Origin: a virus
DNA length: 64,000 nt
Virus record (IMG/VR): IMGVR_UViG_3300006923_000006
Location: 99,652 to 163,651 of that record
Direction: 5' to 3' (one strand)
Shown here: in pieces, positions 1 through 64,000 of the stretch
How the letters are laid out: each line of letters opens with the position of its first letter
Numbering within the stretch: position 1 is the stretch's first letter
The notes under the pieces: generated by a model
Database searches by the model: none
Told to the model about the DNA's origin: nothing
What the model saw: only the letters and a program-made list of their open reading frames with translations
Position numbers and translations under genes: made by a program

Positions 1-1
1 T

Positions 2-1464: not shown

Positions 1465-1468
1465 CAAA

Positions 1469-5258: not shown

Positions 5259-5266
5259 GAGAAATC

Positions 5267-6866: not shown

Positions 6867-7522
6867 TACCTTGTGATGTTAACACACACAGCACTGCTGT
6901 AATGATGCGACAATTTGAAATCAACCCAAAATACGTTATGCATATTGGTGCTCATGACGGTATTGAGGCAGATATTTACGACCACTTTAATGCTAAGTCT
7001 GTCATATGGTTTGAGTGTAACGATAAGCTATTTGAAGACCTGTGGACAAGATTAGAAGGTAGAAAAAACCACGTAGTTGAACCATACTGCTTGTGGCATA
7101 AAGATGGTGAAACTCTTGATTTTCATTATTACAGAGACGAAAAAGACGGTGCTTCTGGACTATTTGAAAATGATAAAATGTTTGATTATATTAAAGATTG
7201 CCCAATTGTTGGAAAAACCCAAGTACACACATTAACCTTTGATACATGGGCAGAAGAAGCCGAAGGTGTACCTTGGAATGAAACAGATTTTCTAAATATC
7301 GACGTTCAAGGAGCAGAATTAAATGTCTTTAAAGGGGCACAAAAATTACTTAACCTCTCTTCTCTTAAATATATATGGTGTGAAGTATCTTGGGACCATG
7401 TTTACAAAAATGCACCGCTTATGGAAGATATTGACAAATGCTTGGAACAATACGGATTTGTCAAAATCGGAGTTAGAAAAGATTGGGAAATTCACGGAGA
7501 CGCATTGTATGTTAAAGCATGA
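6857..7522 (+). CDS. FkbM-family methyltransferase
   Basis: 221 residues. VMHIGAHDGIEADIY is the SAM-binding motif I, VIWFECNDKLFEDL the acidic motif II region, then VEPYCLWHKDGETLDFHYY, VHTLTFDTWAEE and FLNIDVQGAELNVFKGA, which is the FkbM signature DVQGAE. Enzymes of this family O-methylate sugars or small molecules. In this neighbourhood a role in methylating the phage-made glycan is plausible. Overlaps the previous gene by 10 bases. Confidence 0.85.
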   Translation: MGLVPCDVNTHSTAVMMRQFEINPKYVMHIGAHDGIEADIYDHFNAKSVIWFECNDKLFEDLWTRLEGRKNHVVEPYCLWHKDGETLDFHYYRDEKDGASGLFENDKMFDYIKDCPIVGKTQVHTLTFDTWAEEAEGVPWNETDFLNIDVQGAELNVFKGAQKLLNLSSLKYIWCEVSWDHVYKNAPLMEDIDKCLEQYGFVKIGVRKDWEIHGDALYVKA

Positions 7523-7580
7523 TAAAGGATTCCACGGAGTACCAGCAAACCCAAAGAGTATTATATTAGAGGAGGATAAG

Positions 7581-7922
7581 ATGCAACCCAGAGATTTTTG
7601 TTATTGGCTCAAAGGTTATTTTGAATTAAGAAAAGACCAAGGTGAAGATAAACACTATTTAGATGAAGTACAAACCCAAATCATTGAAGACCATCTTGAC
7701 TTGGTTTTTAAAAAGGAAACACCAGATAGACAACCCAGAAAAGAAGATGTAGTACAACTACGTTCTATACTGGCACAAAATGGTGTCCCAAACAAAAATG
7801 ACGACATTTATTGTACAAGTTCTTTTACTATGCCACCAGACCAAGTCGCTCGTCAGGACCAATTAAAACACGATAATTTTCCAACCATATTTTGGCCAGA
7901 TGGTCCACCAGCAAGTTGCTAG
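7581..7922 (+). CDS. Conserved phage protein of unknown function
   Basis: 113 residues from the ATG at 7581, chosen because a perfect GGAGG site lies nine bases upstream; longer in-frame starts would run deep into the methyltransferase gene. The N-terminus MQPRDFCYWLKGYFELR matches a short helical protein common in large tailed phages (family known to me only as hypothetical). No catalytic motif is visible. The C-terminal third is low in structure and proline-rich (TMPPDQVARQ, WPDGPPASC). Confidence 0.6.
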   Translation: MQPRDFCYWLKGYFELRKDQGEDKHYLDEVQTQIIEDHLDLVFKKETPDRQPRKEDVVQLRSILAQNGVPNKNDDIYCTSSFTMPPDQVARQDQLKHDNFPTIFWPDGPPASC

Positions 7923-7932
7923 GAGAAATAAT

Positions 7933-8844
7933 ATGAAACTAATTGACACATTCTTATTTTCCGAACCTTACGAATCAGACCTGTTGTGGTTAAAGTTTAA
8001 ACTTGAAACACCATTTGTGGACGAATGGATTATTCAAGAATGTGACCACACCACGCAGGGAGATTTTAAAGGATTATTTGCCAACGGAATATTAGAGGAA
8101 GAGAGATTTAAACCATATCTAAACAGAATTAAGATTTTTCAACATCATGGAAATCCCGCAATAAAAGACGGTAAAGAAAACACCAACTTTATGCGAGAAA
8201 ACTTTCAAAGAACTTTATGTGCTGAATATCTGTCTACGCAACATGACGACACTCTGGTTATTGTTTCTGATACTGATGAAATGATTGATTGTACAGACGA
8301 AGATAAAAGATTGTGGCGATTTAAAGAAATACTCAAACGACACCATAATGAGTATTTTTTTCTTGGTAGAATGCGTTATTGGTTTGATTATGACAATAGG
8401 TGTTACCTTCCAAATATTAGAATTCCTATTGCGAACGTTGGAATGATGAAACGTAGTGGCGGATTAAAACAATGTTTATCTACCTTAAGACATATTCAAG
8501 GACAAGGACCAACCTACGACGTTGGTGAGACTCCAATTGCTTTTGAGTACTCTTACGTATTTAAAAGCTTAGAAGACTTATGGAGAAAGAAAACTACATA
8601 CGCTCATAATAACTTTGATGTAGAATGTTTAGAAAAAGCATTAAAATACAATCATTGGCCAAGGACATCCAAAAGAGGAGAACGTGTTGGTCAAGAGCCA
8701 TATGATTTCTTTGAAAAAGTTACACTCACAGAAGAAAACTCGCCAAAATATGTGCGAGAAAATATAGAGAAATTGCGTACAAACATAGTAAGTTCGGTGT
8801 ATAGATTAAATAGGACTAATGATAGGATAGGACCAAATGAATAA
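7933..8844 (+). CDS. Glycosyltransferase family 17-like
   Basis: 303 residues from the ATG at 7933 behind an AGGAGA site. LIDTFLFSEPYESDLLWLKF and the following ETPFVDEWIIQECDHTTQGD match the start of GT17 (N-acetylglucosaminyltransferase III-like) proteins, and LVIVSDTDEMIDCTD provides the DxD metal site; FFLGRMRYWFDYDN and LKQCLSTLRHIQG follow. Likely another transferase of the glycan island. Family assignment is moderately sure, substrate unknown. Confidence 0.65.
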   Translation: MKLIDTFLFSEPYESDLLWLKFKLETPFVDEWIIQECDHTTQGDFKGLFANGILEEERFKPYLNRIKIFQHHGNPAIKDGKENTNFMRENFQRTLCAEYLSTQHDDTLVIVSDTDEMIDCTDEDKRLWRFKEILKRHHNEYFFLGRMRYWFDYDNRCYLPNIRIPIANVGMMKRSGGLKQCLSTLRHIQGQGPTYDVGETPIAFEYSYVFKSLEDLWRKKTTYAHNNFDVECLEKALKYNHWPRTSKRGERVGQEPYDFFEKVTLTEENSPKYVRENIEKLRTNIVSSVYRLNRTNDRIGPNE

Positions 8845-8926
8845 TTATTGGGATTTTTACGCAGACGGCGATTTGATTATTTGTCATCCATCTAACTACA
8901 ATCTTATATGTGACGAAATCAACTGA
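8837..8926 (+). CDS. Possible 29-residue peptide gene
   Basis: An ATG overlapping the end of the GT17-like gene opens a frame encoding MNNYWDFYADGDLIICHPSN and nine more residues, ending at TGA 8924-8926. The start arrangement (ATGAATAA) is the same as at 9934 and 10082. Short, so it could be chance. The 90 bases that follow, up to 9017, hold no convincing gene. Confidence 0.3.
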   Translation: MNNYWDFYADGDLIICHPSNYNLICDEIN

Positions 8927-9017
8927 AAGAATAACTGAAGATAAGCCAGTATATGGTATATGATTAATACAAAGCCTTTACGCAGAATATTAACATTGCC
9001 AATCGACGGAGATAAAG

Positions 9018-9941
9018 ATGAAAGTATTAGTCAGCGGAGCGGGTGGGTTCGTGGGAAATGTTTTGTGCCGCCAACTTCTGTACAAAGGACATCAAGTAGT
9101 AGCTTTTGACAATTTTCATAAGGGCCAATGCGATGCGTTAATTCCACTGGTCAGTAATGATAATTTTTCCTTCATATATGGAGACGTAACAAATAAATCA
9201 GACGTTACTAAAGCAATGTCTGGAATAGACGGAATTATCCACCTAGCAGCAATAGTTGGTGTTCCCGCATGTAATCGCCATCCAGCATTAGCAAAAGCGG
9301 TTAATGTAGAAGGAACGCAAAATATAGTAAATGCCAAATCTCAAGATATGCCGATTGTGTATGCTTCTACTGGTTCTGTTTATGGAGCAGTTGAAGGAAC
9401 ATGTACAGAACGTAGTCCAACAAACACAAATACGCTTTATGGTATTACAAAACTAAATGCAGAAAAAATTATTAGAGATACTACAAATTCCGTATCTTTA
9501 AGATTTGCAACAGGTTTTGGTTTAAGTCCGTGTATGCGAGTAAATTTATTAGTTAATGACTTTGTTTATAGAGCTAAAAACGAAGGTTGCTTAACTGTGT
9601 TTCAAAAATCTTTCAGAAGAACTTTTATTCATGTTACAGACATGGCACGAGCACTAATTTTTTCTTTAGAACACAACAAAACATTTAAAAACGACGTTTA
9701 TAATTGTGGTGACAATAATTTAAACTGGACCAAAGAACAACTATCGGAGTATGTTAAAGAAAGGACTGGATGTTATGTTAGTTATGCAGAGTTTGGAACA
9801 GACGCTGACCTTAGAGATTATGCTTGTGATTTTAGCCTGTTAAATGAAGAAGGGTTCTTTTGTACGGTTACCATGGAAGAAGGTATAGACGAACTTATTA
9901 AAGCAACACCGTTATTACAAATAAGACATCAATATGAATAA
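9018..9941 (+). CDS. NAD-dependent sugar-nucleotide epimerase/dehydratase (SDR)
   Basis: 307 residues. Complete extended-SDR motifs: VLVSGAGGFVGNVLC, then IIHLAAIVGVPACN, the catalytic ASTGSVYG strand, and YGITKLNAEK (YxxxK). RRTFIHVTDMARALIFSL is the substrate-domain signature. It should modify a nucleotide-activated sugar. It differs clearly from the SDR at 5267, so the island probably performs at least two separate sugar conversions. Start at 9018 has a GGAGAT site upstream. Confidence 0.85.
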   Translation: MKVLVSGAGGFVGNVLCRQLLYKGHQVVAFDNFHKGQCDALIPLVSNDNFSFIYGDVTNKSDVTKAMSGIDGIIHLAAIVGVPACNRHPALAKAVNVEGTQNIVNAKSQDMPIVYASTGSVYGAVEGTCTERSPTNTNTLYGITKLNAEKIIRDTTNSVSLRFATGFGLSPCMRVNLLVNDFVYRAKNEGCLTVFQKSFRRTFIHVTDMARALIFSLEHNKTFKNDVYNCGDNNLNWTKEQLSEYVKERTGCYVSYAEFGTDADLRDYACDFSLLNEEGFFCTVTMEEGIDELIKATPLLQIRHQYE

Positions 9942-10089
9942 ACAAGAAGAACATGTGTATTGGATGACACAAAAAGAACTAGTAACTTGGTTATTAAGAA
10001 ATTCTGCTCATAATTCTGATGGTTCTATAACTATACCAAAAACAAAAGTAGACTTTTTAGAAAAGAAACTAGGATTTAGAAATGAATAA
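9934..10089 (+). CDS. Small hypothetical protein
   Basis: 51 residues (MNKQEEHVYWMTQKELVTWL...), starting inside the end of the SDR gene and ending inside the start of the sulfotransferase gene, so it fills the gap exactly and is probably translated by coupling. It is charged, probably helical, with no recognised motif. Confidence 0.5.
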   Translation: MNKQEEHVYWMTQKELVTWLLRNSAHNSDGSITIPKTKVDFLEKKLGFRNE

Positions 10090-10861
10090 ATTAATAAATT
10101 TCATAGGACTACAAAGATGCGGTACTCACGCGGTTGCAAACTGGATTATTCATCAAAGTGAAAACGCAGAAAAAGAACAACATCCAACACACTTTCATGA
10201 TGATGTTTGGTATTATGATTGGGGCTCTTTTACATGTGGCATAATGTTTAACTCTAGATTTCCACATAATCCAGAGATTGGATATAATCATCTTAAAAAA
10301 ATCAAAGAATATTTAGGCAATCCAACTGTTGATGTGTGTCTTTTGTGTTATGAGTGTTCTTTAGTTTATATGCATTATGATTGTAAAGCAGAACCCGATT
10401 TATATGAAACAGATAGAAAAAACTTTCAATCTAATAACGAACAAACAGTTATATTACTTAGGGATGTTAAAAATTGTTTTGCTAGTTTCTACAAAAAATA
10501 CGGTCATGTACCTCAACATATTATAGGACATTGGGAAGCTAGAGCTAATGAAATACTTGGAAAAACGAAAAATGTTCCAAATCATGTATTCTTAAATTAC
10601 AACAAATGGTTTATTGACAAAAAATATAGACAACAACTATGTAATGATTTAAGTTTATATTTTACTGACATTGGCAAAAGTCAAGTTCCAAATTTTGGTG
10701 GTGGTTCCTCTTTTTCTGGCAGACAAGCAGATGGTAACGCAAGTTCTATGGACGTACTAACCAGATTTAGAAATTTTGATAAAAACGCAGGATTCCAACG
10801 AACACTGCAAACCCATAAACACTTAGTTGAATTATCGGACGAAATTTTTGGAGAAATGTAG
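10082..10861 (+). CDS. Sulfotransferase-like protein
   Basis: 259 residues. FIGLQRCGTHAVANWII is a P-loop-like 5'-phosphosulfate binding loop of the PAPS-dependent sulfotransferase type, and VILLRDVKNCFASFYKKYG fits the 3'-phosphate site (RDxxxxxxS). HIIGHWEARANEI and VFLNYNKWFIDKKYR correspond to later helices of the family. It likely sulfates the sugar product or another carbohydrate. No PAPS-making genes are nearby, so host PAPS would be used. The kinase-like P-loop fold is an alternative. Confidence 0.65.
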   Translation: MNKLINFIGLQRCGTHAVANWIIHQSENAEKEQHPTHFHDDVWYYDWGSFTCGIMFNSRFPHNPEIGYNHLKKIKEYLGNPTVDVCLLCYECSLVYMHYDCKAEPDLYETDRKNFQSNNEQTVILLRDVKNCFASFYKKYGHVPQHIIGHWEARANEILGKTKNVPNHVFLNYNKWFIDKKYRQQLCNDLSLYFTDIGKSQVPNFGGGSSFSGRQADGNASSMDVLTRFRNFDKNAGFQRTLQTHKHLVELSDEIFGEM

Positions 10862-10867
10862 ACAATA

Positions 10868-11809
10868 ATGGAAATTAACTTAAAGGAAAAAAAATGTTTA
10901 ATTACGGGTTCTGGCTCAATGATTGGGCTCGCTGTTGTAAAATCTTTGAAAAGACGTGGTGCTGACTGTATTGAAGTTTATCATAAGGACTGGGATTTAG
11001 AGTACGGACCTGAAGTTGATGACATTTTCCGACTTATGCAACCAGATTACGTATTTCACTTGGCTGGATATAACGGCGGAATTGAATGGAATAGAAAATA
11101 TCCAGCAGACATTTTTAAACGCAACGTTCAAATGGGTTTAAACATCCTTAATAGCTGTGTAACATACAATACCAAAAAAATAGTATCAGTTATGGCATCT
11201 TGTGCTTACCCAGATATGCCCGCAGAAGAATACGAAGAAAAAGATTTCTGGGCAGGCTTACCAAACTCAAGCGTAGAATGTCATGGACTGGCCAAACGAA
11301 TGCTACACGCTTATTCTCGACAGATTAACAAACAATACGGAGACCAAGCTACAACCGTTATTTTAACTAACTCATACGGTCCTCACGACAGTTACCATCC
11401 AGAAAAAACCAAAGTTGTTGGAGCAGCAATTAAAAGAATAGTTGAAGCTCAACAGAACAACACGGATTGTACGTTTTGGGGCAGTGGCAAACCATTGCGA
11501 GAATTTATGTTTTCTCTTGATGCAGGCGAAGCCATTGTACAGACCATGGAAAAATACGACAATTTTGAGTCTCCTTTAAACTTGGGTTCTGGACAAGAAG
11601 TATCCATTCAGAGATTGGCTTATACCATATCTAAAATAGTAGGATATGACAGTAACAGAATACATTGGGACACAACCAAACAGGATGGCCAAATGAGAAA
11701 AAGATTAAATACTACCAAAATGAGAGAATATCTTAATGTCCCAATTACTAGACTAGAAGACGGATTGTTCAAAACTATCGAATGGTATAAGGAGACATAT
11801 TGTGACTAA
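10868..11809 (+). CDS. GDP-L-fucose synthase-like SDR with altered catalytic residues
   Basis: 313 residues. The NAD loop LITGSGSMIGLAVV, HLAGYNGGIEWN, and the run TNSYGPHDSYHPEK, then FWGSGKPLREF place it next to GDP-fucose synthase. Compared from memory with the E. coli enzyme, the catalytic Ser is Ala110, the Tyr of YxxxK is His139 (CHGLAK), and the active-site His after GPHD is Lys182; Cys112 and Lys143 are kept. It may have lost reductase activity or changed reaction. A GDP-mannose dehydratase, the usual upstream enzyme, is encoded at 53340-54500. Confidence 0.7.
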   Translation: MEINLKEKKCLITGSGSMIGLAVVKSLKRRGADCIEVYHKDWDLEYGPEVDDIFRLMQPDYVFHLAGYNGGIEWNRKYPADIFKRNVQMGLNILNSCVTYNTKKIVSVMASCAYPDMPAEEYEEKDFWAGLPNSSVECHGLAKRMLHAYSRQINKQYGDQATTVILTNSYGPHDSYHPEKTKVVGAAIKRIVEAQQNNTDCTFWGSGKPLREFMFSLDAGEAIVQTMEKYDNFESPLNLGSGQEVSIQRLAYTISKIVGYDSNRIHWDTTKQDGQMRKRLNTTKMREYLNVPITRLEDGLFKTIEWYKETYCD

Positions 11810-12278
11810 AAAAGTCGGATTAGTTCTTCCTCATTTACATTCGTCTCAGATTGCCTTTTTTGGATTGAGTTATATCAACAATATTGTCAGTCAAACCAAC
11901 GAGTATGATTTTGCTGTTTTTTATCAAGATTTGTTACCTGCGTGCGTGCGTCCTAATTGTGCTATTATGAACTACAACGAAATATGGACCCATAATGGAC
12001 TATTGATTGCTACTAATTTAGATACCGCCGATGCTTGTTTACGAACAGTGTCATCGTCAAAAACATTATTTTATGTTAATGACTTAGAATGGTTGCGAAA
12101 AGATAGACATAATTTCTTACGAAACATCAACATATATCGCAATGTAAGCTATCTCGTATGCAGAAGCGAACACCACGCCAAGCAACTACAACACTACTGC
12201 AATCGCAAAGCTGACGCCGTAATTTCTTTGTTTAATTTGACACAAATTCTTGACTTCGCATTTGACAAAACCGTCTAA
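11802..12278 (+). CDS. Glycan-island protein, resembles a glycosyltransferase N-terminal half
   Basis: 158 residues from a GTG start at 11802 with an AAGGAGA site, overlapping the previous stop. KVGLVLPHLHSSQIAFFGLSY opens like a GT-B domain, with IWTHNGLLIATNLDTAD, TLFYVNDLEWLRKD and VSYLVCRSEHHAKQL in the order typical of acceptor domains, but the donor-binding half is absent. It may be a truncated transferase or an accessory subunit. The coding end contains the promoter for the next operon. Confidence 0.5.
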   Translation: MTKKVGLVLPHLHSSQIAFFGLSYINNIVSQTNEYDFAVFYQDLLPACVRPNCAIMNYNEIWTHNGLLIATNLDTADACLRTVSSSKTLFYVNDLEWLRKDRHNFLRNINIYRNVSYLVCRSEHHAKQLQHYCNRKADAVISLFNLTQILDFAFDKTV

Positions 12279-49322: not shown

Positions 49323-49326
49323 CTAG
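49293..49326 (-). terminator. Probable terminator after large terminase
   Basis: A 9-bp perfect stem CTAGGACGA/TCGTCCTAG with a four-base loop (49305-49326), followed on the minus strand by ATTATTTTG. The terminase stop TAG lies in the stem. The T-run is interrupted, so strength is uncertain. Confidence 0.65.
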
Positions 49327-52300
49327 TATACATCTTTCATCTTTTCGGTAAACCACGCGGGTCCAATGTATCCAGCGTCGTTTTTGTCTATTTTCAAATT
49401 ACCATCGTCAGCCCAACCTCCACCCATATCATATCTTCTAGCCTCTGGAGCACGCTGAATACCTCTGGCTATAGAATTAGCTACAACCAGTGCAGAATAG
49501 CGGTCTTTTCTCATTCTGCCTTTTTTATTGCCTGGAAGCTTAATTTCTGGAGTATCCCACTTATCTCGCCCACTTGGCGTTTCTGTCATTGTAATAATAG
49601 ATAACTCATTTTTAAGTTCTTCTATTTCCATCATACAATCTTCTAAAGTATCAAATGTACGATTATGTTGCTTATCTTGTGCTGCTGATAGTTCTATACT
49701 AACAGGGTCAAAGAAAGGAAACAATATCGCCCTATCTTCAAAGTCTTTACGAAGACCATGATTAGCGTCTGATGTCCAGTTGGCGTTTGCAAACTCTACG
49801 GGATAAACACAATGGTTACCAGAATATCCATCGGTAGGTTCTTCTTTTTCTGGATTAATCCAAGGCCAAAGTTGTGTCTCTCCTTCTTGTATCTTATCCT
49901 TATCACTTAAACCTTCAATTACAGCACGTCCACCACCTTGAGCATCGATTCCAATATGGTCAGTAGGAAATCTTTTCATAAGGGTGCGGATTTTACGACA
50001 ACAGTACGAATAAAAATCTGCCTCTTGAGTTAAACCTAATTTCATCTTTTCTGTATGGTCTTTCTTATTAGTTGTCCATACATAAATAAGTCTTCTATGT
50101 TCTGGTCTCATTTCCATAATAATAATAGAAAAATTGTCAACCTGTGAAGCTGGGTCAATTCCGTATACATATCTCATATTATGATTACCATGTAATGTAG
50201 CATTGAACATAATATCATTTTCGCTATGAAAAGATATACGATTGTCAGGACTTACTACACAAGACTCAACAAGAGAACGTTTAAAGAATCCATCGCTATC
50301 ATTTGAGAACGAATTATGAACAGTAGCATTCAATAAAGAATATGAATTATCTACATCTACTTCTAAATTATATAGTAATCCATCATATTTAATTAATTCT
50401 TTTTCTGTTATTGGTAATAATGTTTTTTCTCCATCATTAAAAATCTTTTGTGGTTGTTTTTTTTCTGGTTCTCTAGATAGAACACCATAAAATTCAAACA
50501 TAAAATCTCTGAAATTTTTACCACTAAGTTTCAAATAATATGCATTTTCTTGTGTGCTCTTCATAAGAGACGATGAAATATTAAAATATGACAATACTAA
50601 TCGTACCTGATTTAATAAAGATTGACTCACAGAACTAGCAGATACCCATTCAGAATTTTTGATACTCCGTATATGTCCATCACCGTTCCAGTATCCTTCT
50701 ACAAAACCCCTCATAAAATCTTCATTAGAAAATAAAATGTTGTGTTTTACTAATTTAGTAAATGAATTACCAGGACATATGTATTTCATAATATCAGCAA
50801 CTAATCTACTATTAATATTAATAGATATTGTATTTTTTTGCTTAATATATGATTTACCGTGAAAACCAAATACTTTAAATATAGAGTCTAAAAGTTGCTT
50901 CTGATATTGAGTATCTTTATGTTCATCTAAAGCAAATTCTGCTTGTTTTCCATTACTACCAATACTGCCTTCTGCTGCATAATATCCAATAATAAGACCA
51001 AAATCATAATCAAGAGGAACAATATTAGGTATACTATTTTTAGGAATATTTCTATTTTTTTGCACATAAGAAACTACAGCTTGTGATAATCCAAACTTTT
51101 CTCCTAATTTGACCTGTGTTAATTTTTCTATATTGTTTCTAACTGCTCTTTGAGTTGTTATATTAAACGTACTCTTACTGCCTCTAGGATACAACCTCTG
51201 TCCGTTATATGTCTCTAAAATATCAGTTAATATTTTTCCTGGTATAAAGTATTTATCTCCATTTAATTCATTAAGATTAACAAGATTAGTGTTATCACAC
51301 ATATGAGACATCTCTATAAACTTGTCGTTTTTAATCCAGTAAGGATGGTTTGGCGAAGTCATTACTTCTTTATTATATCCTAGTGTTTTATATTTTATGA
51401 TGTTATCATTATACTGTCTAAACATCTTTTTGGATACCGGCATAAATCTACCTTTATGTGTCAAAACTAAGTCTCCAACTTCAACATCTACTATCTTCTT
51501 AATACCTTTAGATGTAGTTATTAGGGTATCAGAAGTTTGACATGCTCCATATTCCATGTTGTAGATAGCAGAGTGGTTAGTAGCTCTAGCACGAGCAATC
51601 TGAGCGTCATCCATAAAGCCTTTAGGAACCTTTTCATAAGGTATGCGTATAACAGAATAGTCATGATGATTAACACCAATTACCTGTTCTTCTTCGCTAA
51701 GATGCCCAGCAATTCTTCTCATATCACCACCACTGCTAATAATGTCTTTCCATTTTTTCCAATACTCACAAAAATGATTAAAACTATAATATGCAGTACC
51801 AGAAATAACAATTTGGTTACCCATAACACTATCTAAACTATCGTCATACTCTACTGGTAGTTCAATCTTAATGTCGTGCTTTTTTTCTAGTTTTTTAGCT
51901 AACTCTTGAGCAGCACGTTTTTGAACGTTTGTTTTAGGGCTAGAACTAACAATAGCAAAACCAGCAATAACTCTTTCAAAAATATCACGACTAATAGACG
52001 CAAATTCATCAGCAAGAATATCATTAGCACGTTGACCACGAATCTTTTGGCCGTCACCAATCGGCAACGCCGTAGCTACGTTCTCACCTATAAAAACACG
52101 ACACATGTCAGGACTAGTGCGGTCATATGCTCCTAAGTCTTTTAATATAGGAGCATTATTAATTGTGCTCTGCATGTACTCAAAGATGACCTTAGACTGA
52201 CGGAAAGCAGCACCACAAATAACGACCTTACGAGGAGCAGGCATTAATAAGATACGCAACAGCCCATATATACCTAATATCCACGACTTTCCAAGACCAC

Positions 52301-52586
52301 GACTTCCAATTAACATCGGAAATTTTCGATTCCACAACTCTCTAAGTATTAATGACTGCATAGGTAAAAGTTCTACGTTAAATATTTCTGAACAAACAAA
52401 AGAAAAATATTCTGGTTGTTGCATTAACCATGTAACATATAAATGTGGATTTTCACTAAGCTCAGAAGGTATGTCCAATAGAGGATTATATAACTTACTT
52501 TCATCTACAGTTATGTTTAACCAAGCGTCACCAAGTACTCTGTGTATATCTTCTTTGTCTTTAATATTAAAACGATTGTTTGCCAT
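49323..52586 (-). CDS. Terminase large subunit with intein
   Basis: 1087 residues, of which 349-758 are an intein, leaving a 677-residue terminase. ATPase: Walker A GSRGLGKSW (residues 94-102), Walker B DILADEFA (189-196). Nuclease half after the intein: YVYGIDPASQVDNFSIIIME, then IGIDAQGGGRAVIEGLS. It packages DNA into proheads by ATP-driven translocation and cuts it at the end. It overlaps the ERCC4 gene by 20 bases. Intein excision must occur for function. Confidence 0.9.
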   Translation of the reverse strand: MANNRFNIKDKEDIHRVLGDAWLNITVDESKLYNPLLDIPSELSENPHLYVTWLMQQPEYFSFVCSEIFNVELLPMQSLILRELWNRKFPMLIGSRGLGKSWILGIYGLLRILLMPAPRKVVICGAAFRQSKVIFEYMQSTINNAPILKDLGAYDRTSPDMCRVFIGENVATALPIGDGQKIRGQRANDILADEFASISRDIFERVIAGFAIVSSSPKTNVQKRAAQELAKKLEKKHDIKIELPVEYDDSLDSVMGNQIVISGTAYYSFNHFCEYWKKWKDIISSGGDMRRIAGHLSEEEQVIGVNHHDYSVIRIPYEKVPKGFMDDAQIARARATNHSAIYNMEYGACQTSDTLITTSKGIKKIVDVEVGDLVLTHKGRFMPVSKKMFRQYNDNIIKYKTLGYNKEVMTSPNHPYWIKNDKFIEMSHMCDNTNLVNLNELNGDKYFIPGKILTDILETYNGQRLYPRGSKSTFNITTQRAVRNNIEKLTQVKLGEKFGLSQAVVSYVQKNRNIPKNSIPNIVPLDYDFGLIIGYYAAEGSIGSNGKQAEFALDEHKDTQYQKQLLDSIFKVFGFHGKSYIKQKNTISININSRLVADIMKYICPGNSFTKLVKHNILFSNEDFMRGFVEGYWNGDGHIRSIKNSEWVSASSVSQSLLNQVRLVLSYFNISSSLMKSTQENAYYLKLSGKNFRDFMFEFYGVLSREPEKKQPQKIFNDGEKTLLPITEKELIKYDGLLYNLEVDVDNSYSLLNATVHNSFSNDSDGFFKRSLVESCVVSPDNRISFHSENDIMFNATLHGNHNMRYVYGIDPASQVDNFSIIIMEMRPEHRRLIYVWTTNKKDHTEKMKLGLTQEADFYSYCCRKIRTLMKRFPTDHIGIDAQGGGRAVIEGLSDKDKIQEGETQLWPWINPEKEEPTDGYSGNHCVYPVEFANANWTSDANHGLRKDFEDRAILFPFFDPVSIELSAAQDKQHNRTFDTLEDCMMEIEELKNELSIITMTETPSGRDKWDTPEIKLPGNKKGRMRKDRYSALVVANSIARGIQRAPEARRYDMGGGWADDGNLKIDKNDAGYIGPAWFTEKMKDVY
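50313..51542 (-). mobile_element. Intein with LAGLIDADG endonuclease in large terminase
   Basis: 410 residues (349-758). Block A begins with Cys349 (CQTSDTLITTSKGIKKI); block B is TSPNHPYWI; block G ends VHN, and Ser759 is the +1 residue. Two LAGLIDADG-like helices, GLIIGYYAAEGSIG and MRGFVEGYWNGDGHI, make a homing endonuclease, with an extra helix-turn-helix (LGEKFGLSQAVVSYV). All splicing residues are present, so it looks active. Inserted in the segment EYGA-SFSND of the terminase. Confidence 0.95.
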
Positions 52587-54500: not shown

Positions 54501-55317
54501 GTTCCTTATCCACGTCTTCTGGAATTAAAAATGGTTTATCTAATTCACCGTCCTCAAACTTATGATATTCTGATAAACGTATCTGTTCTACTTCTGTAGC
54601 CAGTCTCATTTTTTCCATACGAACACCAAGCTGTTTCCTAACTTCTACGTTTGATAAAACTTCCGTAATCCAACCAGCAAAAGACTTTTTACTATCTTCA
54701 AGCTGTTTAACTCTTTGGTCACGGGTAGCTTTCAAAGCTTGTAGCATCTTATTCTTTTTGTCAAGCATATCACGAAAATCTTTATTTAGAGATTCTTTTT
54801 GTGAATATGCTATTGCTATTTTTTCTTCAAGTAAGACTAATTCGTCAATAGGTGCTCCTTGTTTTTTAAGCTTGTCTAACTCTTGTTCCCACTCTACTAT
54901 CTTTTGGAATAACTGACGTTCTCCAGCTAATGCTCTACTCATAAGTAGTTCTAGCTTGATAGCGTCAGCAATTTGCCATTCTTCCGTATGAAATACGTCA
55001 TCTCTGAACTGACTAATAATTTGACCCCAGTGATGTAGAAACATGTCTAATTCCTTGGGAGTAAACTGATTTTTCAATTCTTGCCAAACAGGACTCTTAC
55101 GAATATCATATTCCGCAATCAAAACAGCCTGTCTAGCCACTTTAGGTACTTTGCCTAGTTTAGCTTGAATAAATCGCTTTACAGTTTTAGCATTCCTTTT
55201 CAAGTGGTCTGCCATTTCTTCCGGTGTGTATTCATCGCAATTATCGGCAATATACTCTTTTTCTACTTTACTTAAGGGACCACTCTTCTGTCCCTTCTGA
55301 TTGCCCGCAGTGCTCAT
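54448..55317 (-). CDS. Probable small terminase subunit
   Basis: 289 residues. The N-terminus LSKVEKEYIADNCDEYTPEE, then MADHLKRNAKTVKRFIQ is a helix-turn-helix; residues about 130-220 form a long coiled coil (ELDKLKKQGAPIDELVLLEE). HTH plus oligomerising helices upstream of the large terminase is the usual small-terminase layout. Overlaps the sigma-like gene by 50 bases and gmd by 53. Not certain without a structural match. Confidence 0.55.
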   Translation of the reverse strand: MSTAGNQKGQKSGPLSKVEKEYIADNCDEYTPEEMADHLKRNAKTVKRFIQAKLGKVPKVARQAVLIAEYDIRKSPVWQELKNQFTPKELDMFLHHWGQIISQFRDDVFHTEEWQIADAIKLELLMSRALAGERQLFQKIVEWEQELDKLKKQGAPIDELVLLEEKIAIAYSQKESLNKDFRDMLDKKNKMLQALKATRDQRVKQLEDSKKSFAGWITEVLSNVEVRKQLGVRMEKMRLATEVEQIRLSEYHKFEDGELDKPFLIPEDVDKEHAENAEKVKKSLEIQSK

Positions 55318-60164: not shown

Positions 60165-60644
60165 CTATATGCCACAAACCCTATGGCAATTGTGATTTAG
60201 GCCAAATCGGCCATTTTTGTATCCTCTGTGAGTCTCTGTGCGGCCCGCTAACGAGCGCAACAGGTTAGGGGTATCCTAGGTCAAAACGTGTTTTTCCACC
60301 CCTATGGGGGGTGTGGTTACCTATCTTACCATACTTGCCTATATTAACAAAAATCTCATTATGAGATTCAGTTTGGCACGATAGTTGCTTGTGCATATAC
60401 GCACACTCACAGCACAAAACGCGCACATACGCACCCCCTCTATTGGGGAATTGGAACAAACCCTATGCGGAATATGCGGAATAGGCATTCGACCACTAGT
60501 GTTCATTTGTTCAAATTGTCATTTTGTAAGTGTGCGGCGCGCCGTTTGCTATGCACACTTCAAACGCACACTTCGTTATAACCCTATGGTATATATAGAC
60601 TTAGGGAGTGTCATTTTCGCACACTAGTGTGCATTCCGCAACGT

Positions 60645-60751
60645 GTTGATACATATAGACTTAGGTCAAATAGGCGTGCATATACGCACACTCGGCCCGC
60701 TATGTGAGAATGGACCAAATAGCGTAACATGTTGATACATATAGACTTAGG
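60645..60751 (+). repeat. 21-bp direct repeats (two identical, one partial)
   Basis: Identical copies at 60645-60665 and 60731-60751, with core ACATATAGACTTAGG; a shorter copy at 60591-60605. Between them is another GCATATACGCACACTC unit. A 14-bp palindrome (GCACACTAGTGTGC) is at 60619-60632. Confidence 0.75.
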
Positions 60752-60906
60752 AGAATCCTATTCTGTTTGGCACACGATATGCTACTTGGTTCTAACCGGC
60801 GTTGCCCTACGGCGACGAGGGCGGCTAGATACGGGCAGTATCACGCAACACCGCCAATCGCTCCTTGACAATTCGGTAGAACGCTAGGTGGTGACATCCG
60901 TAGAAT

Positions 60907-61009
60907 GGACTGCGGACCTACCATATGCAACGGATTAGACTCTGTGCAGAACGGCCCGTAGGCGTCCTCTGTGGACGCATAGCGGGCTGTTTAGCGTATG
61001 GTCCAGTCC
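60907..61009 (+). ncRNA. Candidate structured RNA or leader (long nested stem)
   Basis: Four nested stems pair in order: GGACTG/CAGTCC, ACCATATGC/GCGTATGGT (one G-T), GGCCCG/CGGGCT (one G-T), GCGTCC/GGACGC around a TCTGT loop. It ends 17 bases before the start at 61027, so it would be the 5' leader of that gene. A structured RNA or protein-binding site is possible. No match to a known riboswitch. Confidence 0.4.
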
Positions 61010-61026
61010 AAACCAAGGAGCATAGC

Positions 61027-61203
61027 ATGGAACCAGTACTAGTAACCCGCGAGCAATACGATTGGTTGGTTCAAAACCATTCTAGTTGGATGTTACACGA
61101 TTGGTTAAGATTCAATCGGGAATGGCGCCTGTCGGGAGTAAAGTGTTACGGTTCGTTTTCAATGTTGGTTGAGCTACGATTTAAGCTTCGCCAGTTTAGT
61201 TAA
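61027..61203 (+). CDS. Small hypothetical protein
   Basis: 58 residues with AAGGAG 11 bases upstream of ATG 61027. Trp-rich and basic (QYDWLVQNHSSWMLHDWLRF, VKCYGSFSMLVELRFK). First gene of the small-gene array; its leader differs from those behind it. Not recognised. Confidence 0.45.
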   Translation: MEPVLVTREQYDWLVQNHSSWMLHDWLRFNREWRLSGVKCYGSFSMLVELRFKLRQFS

Positions 61204-61219
61204 CCCCAAATTTCCTAAA

Positions 61220-61244
61220 CAGCCTACTTTAACAGAGTAGGTTG
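61220..61244 (+). repeat. Cassette hairpin 1
   Basis: CAGCCTACT/AGTAGGTTG, 9-bp stem with one G-T pair and seven-base loop, 17 bases after the previous stop. No T-run follows. First of seven hairpins that stand between the small genes. Confidence 0.65.
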
Positions 61245-61265
61245 ATTTGGCAGTTTAGGTAACTT

Positions 61266-61288
61266 GCACAGTCTACGGAGATTAGACA
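61266..61288 (+). promoter_or_regulatory. Cassette leader 1 with TACGGAG site
   Basis: GCACAGTCTACGGAGATTAG precedes ATG 61289 and shares the CTACGGAG ribosome region with the leaders at 61514, 61974 and 62337. Confidence 0.6.
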
Positions 61289-61477
61289 ATGCTGGAAAGC
61301 TTGCTAAACAGAGTAGTTTGGGACAAATGGGAAGTTTTTGACCCCCAAACTGGTCTACCTATCGTCCGCCTACCCGCCAAACATTTGGCAGTTTGGGTAG
61401 CATGGGCAATGAAGGCAAAATGGACCGTTTGCGGTCAAGGCGTGTTTTTGGCAAAATGGGAAGTTTACACAAGGTGA
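61289..61477 (+). CDS. Small hypothetical protein
   Basis: 62 residues, Trp-rich (VWDKWEVFDPQTGLPIVRLP, LAVWVAWAMKAKWTVCG). Contains a pseudo-repeated KWxVxxxG. Second gene of the array. No family recognised. Confidence 0.45.
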   Translation: MLESLLNRVVWDKWEVFDPQTGLPIVRLPAKHLAVWVAWAMKAKWTVCGQGVFLAKWEVYTR

Positions 61478-61488
61478 ATTCCCGATAC

Positions 61489-61511
61489 CGCTTATCTTGA
61501 TAAGATAGGCG
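61489..61511 (+). repeat. Cassette hairpin 2
   Basis: CGCTTATC/GATAGGCG with one G-T pair and a seven-base loop, 12 bases after the stop at 61477. A smaller CGCCA/TGGCG stem follows at 61526-61538. Confidence 0.6.
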
Positions 61512-61513
61512 AT

Positions 61514-61575
61514 TTCGGTAGTTTACGCCATTCTGGCGATTTGAGTAGTTAACACAATTTACGGAGTCTAGTGAA
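61514..61575 (+). promoter_or_regulatory. Cassette leader 2
   Basis: Homologous to 61974-62028 and 62337-62391: a CCATTCTGG small hairpin, AGTTAACAC, then TACGGAGTCTAGTGAA before the ATG. Confidence 0.7.
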
Positions 61576-61920
61576 ATGACGAAGTTAGCATCGTTTGCGT
61601 CAAGTGCGGACAATTGGGACTATGCACAAGCTGTGAAAACAGCGGAAGCTACGGCTGGCGTTGAAATGACCGATTTAGACTGGTTTCGCGCGTTCAACGT
61701 GGCAGTACCAACGGAGGCGGGTACGCGAGACCTATGGACGCTTAAAAACACAAACAAGCGCAACACCGCCAATTCCGCACAATGCCCGAAGAAGGAGCGA
61801 CAACGCCACCACGAAGACCATTATGGTAAAATGGGTATTGTGGGCAAACCAGGAAGCAAGGAGAGAATAGAGGCATTGCGGCAAGCTGTGGAAGCTGGAG
61901 AGTTTGGGCAAGATGAGTAA
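61576..61920 (+). CDS. Small hypothetical protein
   Basis: 114 residues. N-terminal ALA-rich acidic part (NWDYAQAVKTAEATAGVEMT), basic centre (KKERQRHHEDHYGKMG), acidic end (RQAVEAGEFGQDE). It reads through both possible domains without gaps. No family recognised. Confidence 0.45.
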   Translation: MTKLASFASSADNWDYAQAVKTAEATAGVEMTDLDWFRAFNVAVPTEAGTRDLWTLKNTNKRNTANSAQCPKKERQRHHEDHYGKMGIVGKPGSKERIEALRQAVEAGEFGQDE

Positions 61921-61939
61921 CCTGAGTAAGTGAAATAGT

Positions 61940-61970
61940 CTAGTCCGCCTAGGGTAGATGGGCGGACTAG
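61940..61970 (+). repeat. Cassette hairpin 3
   Basis: Perfect 10-bp stem CTAGTCCGCC/GGCGGACTAG with an 11-base loop, 19 bases after the stop. Near-identical to hairpin 4 with paired changes. Confidence 0.75.
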
Positions 61971-61973
61971 CTA

Positions 61974-62028
61974 ATTTCGGCTATTCTGGTCGATTAGGTA
62001 AGTTACACTTTCTACGGAGTCTAGTGAA
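61974..62028 (+). promoter_or_regulatory. Cassette leader 3
   Basis: TTTCGGCTATTCTGG, GTTACACTTTCTACGGAG, then TCTAGTGAA before ATG. The small hairpin pairs here through G-T (GGCTA/TGGTC) where leaders 2 and 4 use Watson-Crick pairs. Confidence 0.75.
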
Positions 62029-62286
62029 ATGGCACAAGATACATTGAATATGGGAACTAGTAATGTTTTGGCAAACGGAGCAGAAATTGTGCAACGTTGG
62101 CAAGTTGGGCAAGTTGGGAAAGATACAACCGAAACTCCCGATTGGATAGTTTTGGCAAAGTGGGGAAACGAATATGCGACATGGCGAGTTTCGCACGATG
62201 GCCATGCATATTGGGGACACTACTTCAACACCTATTCCGCCGCAATGACAGACTACCAAAAACGAGTACGTTGGGTGTTTGGATAG
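62029..62286 (+). CDS. Small hypothetical protein
   Basis: 85 residues (WIVLAKWGNEYATWRVSHDG, AYWGHYFNTYSAAMTDYQKR). Aromatic-rich C-terminus like a small beta protein. Third cassette gene. Unrelated to its neighbours. Confidence 0.45.
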   Translation: MAQDTLNMGTSNVLANGAEIVQRWQVGQVGKDTTETPDWIVLAKWGNEYATWRVSHDGHAYWGHYFNTYSAAMTDYQKRVRWVFG

Positions 62287-62301
62287 AATGAGTAAAATAG
62301 T

Positions 62302-62332
62302 CTAATCCGCCTAGTTAAGCTGGGCGGATTGG
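62302..62332 (+). repeat. Cassette hairpin 4
   Basis: CTAATCCGCC/GGCGGATTGG, 10 pairs with one G-T, 11-base loop. Differs from hairpin 3 by base changes that keep pairing. Confidence 0.75.
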
Positions 62333-62336
62333 ATAA

Positions 62337-62391
62337 TTTTGGCCATTCTGGCTAAATAGGCGAGTTACACTTTCTACGGAGTTTAGGGACT
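62337..62391 (+). promoter_or_regulatory. Cassette leader 4
   Basis: GGCCATTCTGGC small stem, GTTACACTTTCTACGGAG as in leader 3, then TTTAGGGACT before ATGATG. Confidence 0.75.
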
Positions 62392-62643
62392 ATGATGCGA
62401 ATAGAAGATTTGCGCAGGGCTGTCAAGATGGTTGAAATGGGCGAATTGGAAGACATTGCGGTATGGGAAGAAGCTGCGATATTTGACGGGTTTGGGCTGG
62501 AAAGCTTCAAGCCGATAGTTTGCACAATTCAGCAACTAGCATGCCTAGTATTGTGGCAAGCTAGAACATTTGCGGGGACTTGGGACAATGAGGCAATTGC
62601 GGAAATCAGGGCAAACAGGCGGAAGTTTACAGTTGTCAATTGA
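62392..62643 (+). CDS. Small hypothetical protein
   Basis: 83 residues from the first of two ATGs, helical (RIEDLRRAVKMVEMGELEDI, TIQQLACLVLWQARTFAGTW). Its stop codon lies inside a 20-bp palindrome. No family. Confidence 0.45.
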   Translation: MMRIEDLRRAVKMVEMGELEDIAVWEEAAIFDGFGLESFKPIVCTIQQLACLVLWQARTFAGTWDNEAIAEIRANRRKFTVVN

Positions 62644-62649
62644 CAACTG
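62630..62649. repeat. 20-bp perfect palindrome over a stop codon
   Basis: CAGTTGTCAATTGACAACTG is a perfect palindrome; TGA of the upstream gene is in it. Could be an operator or terminator-like fold, but no T-run follows. Confidence 0.75.
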
Positions 62650-62678
62650 GTAAGATAGGCAAAGCAGGTAAAATGGCA

Positions 62679-62702
62679 TAGCTTGGCATAATAGCTAAGC
62701 TA
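62679..62702 (+). repeat. Cassette hairpin 5
   Basis: TAGCTTGGC/GCTAAGCTA, 9 pairs with one G-T, six-base loop. A second small stem CCTGC/GCAGG follows at about 62728-62741. Confidence 0.65.
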
Positions 62703-62748
62703 GGCCGTTTTGGTTGTTTATGTAATCCTGCAAAAGCAGGTAGTCTAA

Positions 62749-62767
62749 TCAAGATAGGGAGTTTGGG
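62749..62767 (+). promoter_or_regulatory. Cassette leader 5 (second type)
   Basis: TCAAGATAGGGAGTTTGGG directly before ATG 62768. Same as the last 18 bases of leaders 6 and 7. Ribosome element GGGAG. Confidence 0.75.
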
Positions 62768-63124
62768 ATGATTATTCAAATTAGCCTATGTGGGTCAATT
62801 ATGGTCGATGTGGAGAATTGGGCACCTAGCACGTTAGAAGATTTTCTCGACTGCGCTAAAAGCGGCAATAATGACGAGGCTTGTGCGTTCTTCTTAAGTA
62901 CTTATCAACCGGATTTTACGATAATCCGGCAAGATAGGCAAACTGGAGAATTTGCGGAAGTTACGGCAACTGAAGAAGAAATGGCGTTTGTGGTTCAAAC
63001 TTCTGGTTGTTCGCCAGTTGACGAAGTAGAGAATTTGCCGTTGTATATTATTTGGTTTGCGGCGCATAATTTGCGGGAAGAAATAAAGATGGCGTTTGAA
63101 GAACGGAAATGGAGTCCGTGTTAA
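62768..63124 (+). CDS. Small hypothetical protein
   Basis: 118 residues, acidic (APSTLEDFLDCAKSGNNDEA, ATEEEMAFVVQTSG, LPLYIIWFAAHNLREEIKM). Fifth cassette gene. No catalytic motif. Confidence 0.45.
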   Translation: MIIQISLCGSIMVDVENWAPSTLEDFLDCAKSGNNDEACAFFLSTYQPDFTIIRQDRQTGEFAEVTATEEEMAFVVQTSGCSPVDEVENLPLYIIWFAAHNLREEIKMAFEERKWSPC

Positions 63125-63150
63125 GATAGGCAATCTGCGTACTCTCGACA

Positions 63151-63185
63151 ATCCAGGTAATCTAGGTAATCTAGGTAATCTGGAT
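63151..63185 (+). repeat. Cassette hairpin 6 and GGTAATCTA tandem repeats
   Basis: ATCCAG/CTGGAT with three tandem GGTAATCT units between. The segment before it (AGGCAATCTGCGTACTCT) recurs at 63504-63521. Confidence 0.6.
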
Positions 63186-63210
63186 AGTCCAGCGTATTTA
63201 GATGTTTTGA

Positions 63211-63238
63211 GTAATCCTCACAAGATAGGGAGTTTGGG
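63211..63238 (+). promoter_or_regulatory. Cassette leader 6 (second type)
   Basis: A 28-base block starting GTAATCCTCACAAGATAGGG, identical to leader 7 (63569-63596), ends at ATG 63239. Confidence 0.8.
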
Positions 63239-63505
63239 ATGACTGCTGTAAATAGGCACGTTGAGTTGATTGCAATAGTTGGGCGGCATGGGGACACTAA
63301 GCGGGTTAATGCCGTTTTTCACGCTATGGTTAATGAATCACAAGCCGACTATGCGTCGCGTTGGCGGGATGTCATTAGCTACGTGTCGGGCACATTGCAC
63401 GACATAAAGCGTATTCAAGCGGTTCAGTTGTGGCTCTTATGTACGGGTTACAAGTTGTCAAATTGTATCATCAAATCGGTAACAATGGGCAAGCCGGTAA
63501 GCTAG
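63239..63505 (+). CDS. Small hypothetical protein
   Basis: 88 residues (MTAVNRHVELIAIVGRHGDT, VNAVFHAMVNESQADYASRW). Its first codons (TAVNR) are similar at DNA level to those of the gene at 63597 (SVTNR). No known family. Confidence 0.45.
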   Translation: MTAVNRHVELIAIVGRHGDTKRVNAVFHAMVNESQADYASRWRDVISYVSGTLHDIKRIQAVQLWLLCTGYKLSNCIIKSVTMGKPVS

Positions 63506-63527
63506 GCAATCTGCGTACTCTAGACAT

Positions 63528-63551
63528 CCCAGCCCGATTAGGCGGGCTGGG
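63528..63551 (+). repeat. Cassette hairpin 7
   Basis: Perfect 9-bp stem CCCAGCCCG/CGGGCTGGG with a six-base loop, 22 bases after the stop at 63505. Confidence 0.7.
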
Positions 63552-63568
63552 TAATCTGTGGTATTTGG

Positions 63569-63596
63569 GTAATCCTCACAAGATAGGGAGTTTGGG
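63569..63596 (+). promoter_or_regulatory. Cassette leader 7 (second type)
   Basis: Identical 28 bases to leader 6, and the match continues into the first codons of the gene. Confidence 0.8.
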
Positions 63597-63749
63597 ATGT
63601 CTGTTACAAATAGGGATTTTGGGAAACATACGTATTCTGTATATGATTTGGCAATTTACGAAAAATGGAAGGAAAAATCTCTGTTAAGATTGACTGAATT
63701 TCTACTATATGCCAATGTTCTACGAGGTTTGATTAGAACAGTGGACTGA
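63597..63749 (+). CDS. Small hypothetical protein
   Basis: 50 residues (MSVTNRDFGKHTYSVYDLAI..., ending LRGLIRTVD) from ATG 63597 after leader 7. Helical in the second half (KEKSLLRLTEFLLYANVLR). Last gene of the array in view. Confidence 0.5.
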   Translation: MSVTNRDFGKHTYSVYDLAIYEKWKEKSLLRLTEFLLYANVLRGLIRTVD

Positions 63750-64000
63750 GTAACCTAGTCTAATCCGTTGCCGAAAATCCAAAGATAATACTTGACATAG
63801 GATAATACTATGTTAAGCTATGTATAGCTGTAGGGGAGGCTGCGCTAATTTATTTGGCTGTGTGCTGGCGTGAGCTACGGCCCTTTGTGCGTCGATTTGC
63901 GGGACGTTACGCTAACGCGGACAATAGTAGGTCAAAGCACAAAAATGGCTTTAGACGCCAATTCTGACAGCCTAGCGGGTAATCCTGACAGCCTAGCGGG
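63750..64000 (+). other. Right-end noncoding stretch with dyads and start of a tandem repeat
   Basis: 251 bases. GATAATACT occurs twice (63784, 63801), ACATAG/CTATGT and AGCTAT/ATAGCT dyads follow, and CTGACAGCCTAGCGGG repeats with a 21-base period (63964, 63985) up to the edge. A frame from 63945 to the edge reads these repeats as NxDSLAG units but lacks a ribosome site, so it is not called. Confidence 0.5.

What the first reader, a model, noticed from the sequence alone, without database searches (positions are those of the whole stretch)
61204..63749. Array of unrelated small ORFs separated by conserved hairpin-plus-leader spacers
Eight small ORFs in a row share no protein similarity that I can see. 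Seven of them are preceded by the same layout: stop, stem-loop of 6-10 bp, a short AT stretch, then a conserved leader with the ribosome site and ATG. Two leader types exist (CTACGGAG at 61266, 61514, 61974, 62337; AAGATAGGGAGTTTGGG at 62749, 63211, 63569). Hairpins 3 and 4 differ by changes that keep pairing. The layout recalls the start-associated sequences and their inverted repeats in cluster K mycobacteriophages, but the motif is different. Conserved flanks with variable ORFs suggest cassettes gained and swapped by homologous recombination, with shared translational or transcriptional control.
Basis: partly seen in the sequence, partly recalled or inferred. Interest (0 to 1): 0.78.

Follow-up and report, generated by a model that had tools for sequence, protein, structure and literature searches.

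The report
Phage mini-gene array with hairpin spacers
A large uncultured phage carries a row of eight tiny, unrelated genes, each preceded by a long RNA hairpin and a ribosome-binding leader, all woven into a nine-letter DNA rhythm; it looks like a self-punctuating operon in which new small genes may arise, and one of them contains a reversed scrap of another of the phage's genes.

Summary
Eight ATG ORFs of 50-118 aa (61027-63749) are each preceded by a folded spacer and a Shine-Dalgarno site 6-10 nt from the ATG. Shuffled sequence never gives more than three such ORFs. The hairpins are long imperfect stems, mostly 23-40 bp (about 14 bp in spacer 2), with no U-tract. Spacers 3 and 4 keep all 23 pairs, three of them through compensatory changes. 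Spacers 1-4 form one local family and 5-7 another.

Two things were missed. First, 61.2-63.67 kb has a degenerate 9-nt period (GGYAAnnTR), covering 94% of spacer bases and 56% of ORF bases, in all three reading frames, with no slippage signature. Second, the last ORF ends in a 73-nt antisense copy (72/73) of the phage's own GMP-reductase-type gene.

Best reading: a polycistronic gene array, probably early, cut or insulated by RNase III-type hairpins, as in T7's early region (inferred). Cassette swapping between phages is not supported: the spacers occur in no other sequence searched. Relatives, found through the 9-nt motif alone, share the general layout and one gene end but use a promoter per gene. 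I rate it a new variant of a known kind. Function is untested.

The parts
60906..61010 (+). S0: long imperfect hairpin (39 pairs) before the first ORF; AAGGAG leader follows
   Evidence: MFE -54.8, z -4.34
61027..61203 (+).
61205..61259 (+). S1: hairpin, 23 pairs (type-1 family)
   Evidence: z -2.74; model R1 E 0.0019
61273..61280 (+). type-1 leader CTACGGAG, Shine-Dalgarno 8 nt from ATG
61289..61477 (+). ORF1, 62 aa, mostly built of 9-nt units
61482..61518 (+). S2: main hairpin, about 14 pairs (type-1 family)
   Evidence: model R1 E 3e-9 for 61448-61578
61559..61566 (+). type-1 leader variant TTACGGAG
61576..61920 (+). ORF2, 114 aa; C-terminal GKPGSKERIEAL shared with five related contigs
61921..61989 (+). 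S3: hairpin, 27 pairs (type-1 family)
   Evidence: z -2.81; 3 compensatory pairs against S4
62012..62019 (+). type-1 leader CTACGGAG
62029..62286 (+). ORF3, 85 aa, orphan
62287..62347 (+). S4: hairpin, 26 pairs (type-1 family)
   Evidence: z -4.56
62374..62381 (+). type-1 leader CTACGGAG
62392..62643 (+). ORF4, 83 aa, orphan, largely 9-nt units in three frames
62648..62751 (+). S5: hairpin, 40 pairs (type-2 family)
   Evidence: z -5.93
62751..62767 (+). type-2 leader AAGATAGGGAGTTTGGG
62768..63124 (+). ORF5, 118 aa, orphan
63128..63207 (+). S6: hairpin, 32 pairs (type-2 family)
   Evidence: z -2.89
63222..63238 (+). type-2 leader
   Evidence: 35/36 identical with S7
63239..63505 (+). ORF6, 88 aa, orphan
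63509..63570 (+). S7: hairpin, 23 pairs (type-2 family)
   Evidence: z -2.48
63580..63596 (+). type-2 leader
63597..63749 (+). ORF7, 50 aa, chimeric: 9-nt-unit N-terminal part plus antisense guaC fragment
63668..63740 (+). 73-nt antisense copy (72/73) of the phage's own IMPDH/GMP-reductase-domain gene at contig 54645-54717
61204..63669 (+). degenerate 9-nt quasi-repeat fabric, consensus GGYAAnnTR, 169 complete units in the 60.0-64.0 kb stretch scanned
63750..63770 (+). remnant of a type-1 spacer start (GTAACCTAGTCTAATCCG) after the last ORF, hairpin lost
63792..63819 (+). promoter-like TTGACA-16-TAAGCT downstream of the array; none matching the family promoter lies inside it

Best explanation
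This is a polycistronic row of eight orphan mini-genes, probably early or accessory, in a roughly 164-kb tailed-phage contig. The intercistronic spacers are RNA punctuation. After each stop codon the transcript folds into a long imperfect hairpin, and a leader then presents a Shine-Dalgarno site to the next ATG.

The most likely mechanism is that the hairpins are cut by an RNase III-type enzyme, or act as 3'-end protectors and insulators. One early transcript would then become a set of similarly translated monocistronic pieces, as in the early region of phage T7.

The spacers multiplied by local duplication (family S1-S4, then S5-S7). New ORFs form between them from the 9-nt-periodic fabric and from captured scraps of phage DNA, as ORF7 suggests.

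Shown here: the ORFs, the leaders, the predicted folding, compensatory changes in S3/S4, spacer paralogy, the absence of U-tracts and of the family promoter, and the antisense fragment. Inferred: early timing, transcription as one unit, cleavage, translation, and the route by which ORFs arise.
For: ORFs with Shine-Dalgarno sites far above shuffles. Frame preference by codon usage in 6 of 7. All eight spacers fold better than shuffles, z -2.3 to -5.9, while windows inside the ORFs average z -0.32 and nonamer arrays of other phages do not fold, so the folding belongs to these spacers. S3/S4: 23 of 23 pairs kept with 3 compensatory changes, and sliding the partner drops pairing to at most 50%. 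No intrinsic terminator on the + strand within 61.2-63.75 kb and at most 3 T in the 8 nt after each main stem, which argues for processing or insulation rather than termination. The family promoter TTGACA-GCCGATA-TATAAT sits before small ORFs in related phages but not inside the array. Spacer families: model R1 recovers S2 (3e-9) and S1 (0.002). 73-nt antisense fragment at 72/73.
Against: No expression or cleavage data. Covariation rests on one pair of paralogues (two sequences), and the tool's shuffle control has no power with two rows (84 of 500 reach the value). S2 has only about 14 pairs in its main stem, short for a classic RNase III substrate. The spacers are absent from related phages, which use a promoter-per-gene layout instead, so the hairpins are not conserved across species. 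The RNase III comparison rests on general knowledge; no T7 paper could be retrieved.
Confidence: 0.42

Rival explanations
1. Cassette exchange: conserved spacers are recombination flanks that let phages gain and swap small ORFs by homologous recombination.
For: Spacers are paralogous while the ORFs differ. Related contigs share only the end of ORF2. ORF7 carries a captured fragment. S6/S7 similarity reaches about 18 nt into the ORFs.
Against: No other viral contig holds either leader or the hairpin arm. The covariance model finds nothing significant outside this array. The fabric crosses ORF boundaries. The only identified donor is an antisense piece of the phage's own gene.
Confidence: 0.15
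2. The 9-nt fabric is the functional element: a regularly spaced binding array on RNA or single-stranded DNA for a phage or host protein, and the ORFs and hairpins are superimposed on it.
For: Period-9 signal at lags 9-54, far above the rest of the contig. Unit identity is flat with distance (0.41 adjacent, 0.41 beyond 1 kb), with only 12 phase jumps in 1532 steps and all three frames used, so it acts at nucleic-acid level and is not local slippage. Related phages found by this motif alone carry a 69-70% identical capsid protein. Other uncultured phages carry (GGCAAACTG)x3-4 just before Shine-Dalgarno and ATG of different genes, and the forward motif lies outside same-strand ORFs more often than a reversed control (21/29 vs 12/37).
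Against: The 4-unit motif is not more frequent in viral contigs than its reversed control (29 vs 37 stretches). The units are very degenerate. No binding protein is identified. Flat identity can also follow from selection of units by the model.
Confidence: 0.2
3. Old tandem-repeat expansion that decayed: the region is a diverged minisatellite in which open frames and hairpins occur by drift.
For: 9-nt tandem units and near-perfect arrays of similar units in other phages.
Against: Adjacent units are no more alike than distant ones. ORFs with Shine-Dalgarno sites and hairpins exceed 9-phase-preserving shuffles. Compensatory changes.
Confidence: 0.1
4. Each spacer is a transcription signal: a terminator followed by a promoter, making eight separate units.
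For: Hairpin then leader resembles terminator-promoter order, and related phages do have a promoter before small early ORFs.
Against: No U-tract terminators on the + strand in the array. No match to the family promoter in any spacer. Sigma-70-like matches not clearly above shuffles (11 vs 7.5, sd 2.7).
Confidence: 0.08
5. The array makes structured or antisense RNAs rather than proteins; for example the ORF7 transcript silences the phage's own guaC-type mRNA.
For: 73 nt complementary to the guaC-type mRNA near its 5' end, 72/73; strongly folded spacers.
Against: Shine-Dalgarno/ATG organisation and in-frame codon usage argue for translation. The fragment begins 38 nt inside the guaC-type gene, not over its ribosome site.
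Confidence: 0.05

Closest known systems
RNase III processing sites between the early genes of phage T7 (from general knowledge)
   Same: Long imperfect hairpins in intercistronic spacers of a row of small genes, followed by Shine-Dalgarno and ATG; no terminator tail.
   Different: Here the spacers are paralogous in two families and lie in a 9-nt periodic fabric; cleavage is untested; host unknown; stems range from about 14 to 40 pairs.
Start-associated sequences (SAS) and extended SAS of cluster K mycobacteriophages (PMC3203893)
   Same: Repeated short sequence with the ribosome site a few nt before ATG of unrelated non-structural genes, with an inverted repeat upstream; restricted to part of the genome.
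   Different: Different motif (GGGATAGGAGCCC there). ESAS repeats do not support RNA pairing according to the authors, whereas S3/S4 covary. SAS is conserved across the cluster; these spacers were found in one contig only.
TAACTGA heptamer repeats before start codons in Beggiatoaceae and cyanobacteria (PMC4679880)
   Same: Short tandem units mostly just upstream of start codons, proposed post-transcriptional role.
   Different: 7-nt exact units in small sets and intergenic; here 9-nt degenerate units over 2.5 kb, spanning coding and non-coding DNA.
17-bp dyad repeats of cluster O mycobacteriophages (PMC4351075)
   Same: Many copies of a short repeat in and between phage genes; some gene gain or loss between copies.
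   Different: Dyad DNA sites scattered genome-wide and not linked to start codons.

Membership tests
T7-type RNase III-processed early operon | Row of small genes with a long irregular hairpin in each intercistronic spacer | tested here: met
   S2 is the weakest, about 14 pairs in its main stem
T7-type RNase III-processed early operon | Hairpins are not intrinsic terminators | tested here: met
T7-type RNase III-processed early operon | RNA pairing conserved by compensatory change | tested here: met
   S3/S4 only: 3 compensatory, 0 broken of 23
T7-type RNase III-processed early operon | One transcript, cleaved in the hairpins by RNase III | not testable with these tools
   Needs RNA ends from infected cells
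Cluster K SAS/ESAS | 13-bp GGGATAGGAGCCC 3-7 nt before ATG | tested here: not met
   Leaders read CTACGGAG / AAGATAGGGAGTTTGGG; motif from PMC3203893
Cluster K SAS/ESAS | 17-bp inverted repeat whose changes do not keep RNA pairing | tested here: not met
   Pairing kept in S3/S4
Terminator-promoter gene modules as in the related phages | Promoter TTGACA-GCCGATA-TATAAT before each ORF | tested here: not met
   Absent from the array; present in G002-G005 and at contig 42, 232, 520
Homologous-recombination cassette array | Same spacers around different ORFs in other genomes | tested here: not met
   No other genome with these spacers found; absence from collections is not proof
Simple tandem repeat (minisatellite) | Neighbouring units more alike than distant ones | tested here: not met
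   Identity about 0.41 at every distance

The most novel reading that the evidence does not exclude
A gene nursery: a 9-nt-periodic, strand-specific nucleic-acid fabric, kept in register by selection, underlies both genes and spacers. It serves as landing ground for captured DNA scraps and supplies ready-made hairpin and ribosome-site punctuation, so that new mini-proteins are born already expressible. ORF7 (N-terminal part of fabric, C-terminal part of antisense guaC) would be a birth caught in the act.
Probability: 0.15. Interest if true: 0.85.

Novelty: new variant of a known kind. Interest (0 to 1): 0.52.

Why it matters
Phage early regions are full of orphan mini-genes whose origin is unexplained. 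Here one such row can be read in detail: each gene has structured punctuation from two paralogous families, the DNA carries a shared 9-nt texture across gene borders, and one gene demonstrably contains a near-identical antisense piece of another phage gene. That makes the birth and instant expression of new phage proteins directly testable. It also adds a structured-spacer layout that ordinary annotation would miss, and a DNA texture that found related phages without any protein query.

Tried and rejected
Rfam (no match at gathering threshold), tRNAs (none), phage and plasmid DNA (no match), protein searches of ORF2, 3, 5 and 6 against 50,697 phage records (nothing, or only a 38% Microviridae fragment at E 0.3).

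General enrichment of the nonamer in phages: rejected. The 4-unit forward motif gives 29 stretches against 37 for the reversed control; only its position outside same-strand ORFs differs.

Nonamer arrays fold by themselves: rejected. Arrays from other phages have z between -1.8 and +0.7.

Protein-level origin of the repeat (Gly-X-Leu in one frame): rejected, because the units are read in all three frames and continue through stops.

Spacer hairpins as intrinsic terminators, and promoters inside spacers: rejected.

One bacterial-genome scan gave scattered short nonamer runs in many phyla, without a host signal. Host remains unknown. Structure prediction was not run: single orphan sequences without an alignment.
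Full report
SETTING. The window is the last 64 kb of a 163,651-base uncultured phage contig with structural genes, a terminase and a large set of sugar-handling genes (gene names judged by eye). This region has no match among 50,697 phage records at the DNA level, and the terminase is only distantly similar to those of Bacillus and Microcystis phages. G+C rises from about 0.36 to 0.41-0.55 in the last 4 kb, where the array lies. The contig ends inside a 21-bp tandem repeat. The same promoter-associated leader occurs near both ends, so the array and the first kilobases of the contig are probably neighbours (inference).

THE OBSERVATION. Eight ATG ORFs of 50-118 aa follow each other on the + strand from 61027 to 63749. 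The real sequence has seven, covering 71% of the bases. Phage codon usage picks the annotated frame as best of six in six of the seven array ORFs. The products are orphans. The exception is the C-terminal GKPGSKERIEAL of ORF2, shared with five related contigs and followed there too by 9-nt units and a short hairpin.

THE SPACERS. Each ORF is preceded by a spacer that folds into a long imperfect hairpin, followed by a leader and then ATG, with GGAG 6-10 nt before the start in all eight. Main stems have 23-40 pairs in seven spacers and about 14 in S2. Energies are below shuffles in all eight (z -2.3 to -5.9), whereas 100-nt windows inside the ORFs average -0.32. S3 and S4 keep all 23 pairs of the extended stem through three compensatory and two one-sided changes. 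With two sequences the shuffle control has no power, so the argument rests on zero broken pairs and on the slide control (at most 50% paired). S1-S4 form one family by covariance model and S5-S7 another. Neither is found elsewhere: not in the rest of the contig, nor in six related contigs at a significant level, nor by exact motif in 2.9 million viral contigs. The weaker sequence-only R2 matches in the related contigs coincide with their 9-nt blocks.

THE 9-NT FABRIC. Autocorrelation at lags 9, 18, 27, 36, 45 and 54 stands out over this region only. A cyclic nine-state model gives the consensus GGYAAnnTR and assigns 94% of spacer bases and 56% of ORF bases to it, with 169 complete units in the 60.0-64.0 kb stretch, in all three reading frames. 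Neighbouring units are no more alike than units 1 kb apart (0.41 in both cases), and only 12 phase jumps occur in 1532 steps. This is not what recent slippage leaves. Units were picked by their fit to the model, so the flatness is suggestive rather than proof of selection. The non-periodic cores lie inside the ORFs.

RELATIVES. A scan with a three-unit motif brought up contigs of 149, 95, 76, 36 and 18 kb. Two of them turned out to carry a capsid protein 69-70% identical to this phage's, so in these phages the motif tracks descent. They have 9-nt blocks of 90-230 nt among small early-type ORFs, their own paralogous intergenic elements, and a shared promoter TTGACA-GCCGATA-TATAAT before small ORFs. 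The promoter also occurs three times at the start of the present contig but nowhere inside the array. Elsewhere, uncultured phages with no detected relation carry (GGCAAACTG)x3-4 directly before Shine-Dalgarno and ATG of different genes. A reversed-motif control was as frequent overall (29 vs 37 stretches), so I do not claim that the nonamer is enriched in phages, only that it lies outside same-strand ORFs more often (21/29 vs 12/37).

ORF7. Its second half, 63668-63740, is a 72/73 antisense copy of the phage's own IMPDH/GMP-reductase-domain gene. The first half is 9-nt fabric with a type-2 leader. The ORF is therefore chimeric and recent. Whether it is translated is unknown.

MECHANISM. The best-supported reading is a polycistronic row whose hairpins punctuate the RNA. 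There are no U-tracts and no promoters, but there is pairing, covariation and a regular ribosome site. By analogy with T7 (general knowledge; no paper could be retrieved), cleavage by RNase III or 3' protection is the likeliest action. Early timing, single transcription and cleavage are inferred. The cassette-swap idea lacks its key prediction, since no other genome with these spacers was found. The SAS/ESAS resemblance is in layout only.

VERDICT. The feature is real, more than chance, and a new variant of structured intercistronic spacers, with an unusual periodic DNA texture that remains unexplained.

Noticed in passing
contig G000 42, 232, 520 (L005) and related contigs G002-G005: Conserved early-type promoter TTGACA/TTGCAA-GCCGATA-TAtaaT, with an unusually conserved spacer between the hexamers, before small ORFs.
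   Followed up: partly
L005:74-114, L005:274-304, window 63822-63862: Repeated element GGGGAGGCTGCGCTAATTTATTTGGCTGTG just downstream of these promoters at both ends of the contig; perhaps a leader RNA.
   Followed up: no
L013, L016, L017, L055 and about 40 other viral loci: (GGCAAACTG)x3-4 directly before Shine-Dalgarno and ATG of different genes (NinB-like, DUF3310-like, PAPS-reductase-like, methyltransferase-like; names judged by eye) in uncultured phages; the two stretches tried gave no good match in isolate phage records.
   Followed up: partly
L068 (- strand 6116-6308), L088 (- strand 1447-1677), L036/L099: Long degenerate arrays of the same 9-nt unit in other viral contigs without this phage's capsid gene, apparently unstructured as RNA.
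   Followed up: partly
window 63960-64000: The contig ends inside a 21-bp tandem repeat, so the assembly probably broke there and the array region may continue.
   Followed up: no
window 60644-60665 and 60730-60751: Exact 22-bp repeat TGTTGATACATATAGACTTAGG upstream of the array; a similar sequence occurs in intergenic elements of the related contig G004.
   Followed up: no
window 49323-52586: The terminase large subunit appears to contain an intein (middle part matches other phage proteins such as an annotated thymidylate synthase).
   Followed up: no
window 1-12000: Cluster of glycosyltransferase-, epimerase- and sulfotransferase-like genes (judged by eye), unusual in size for a phage.
   Followed up: no
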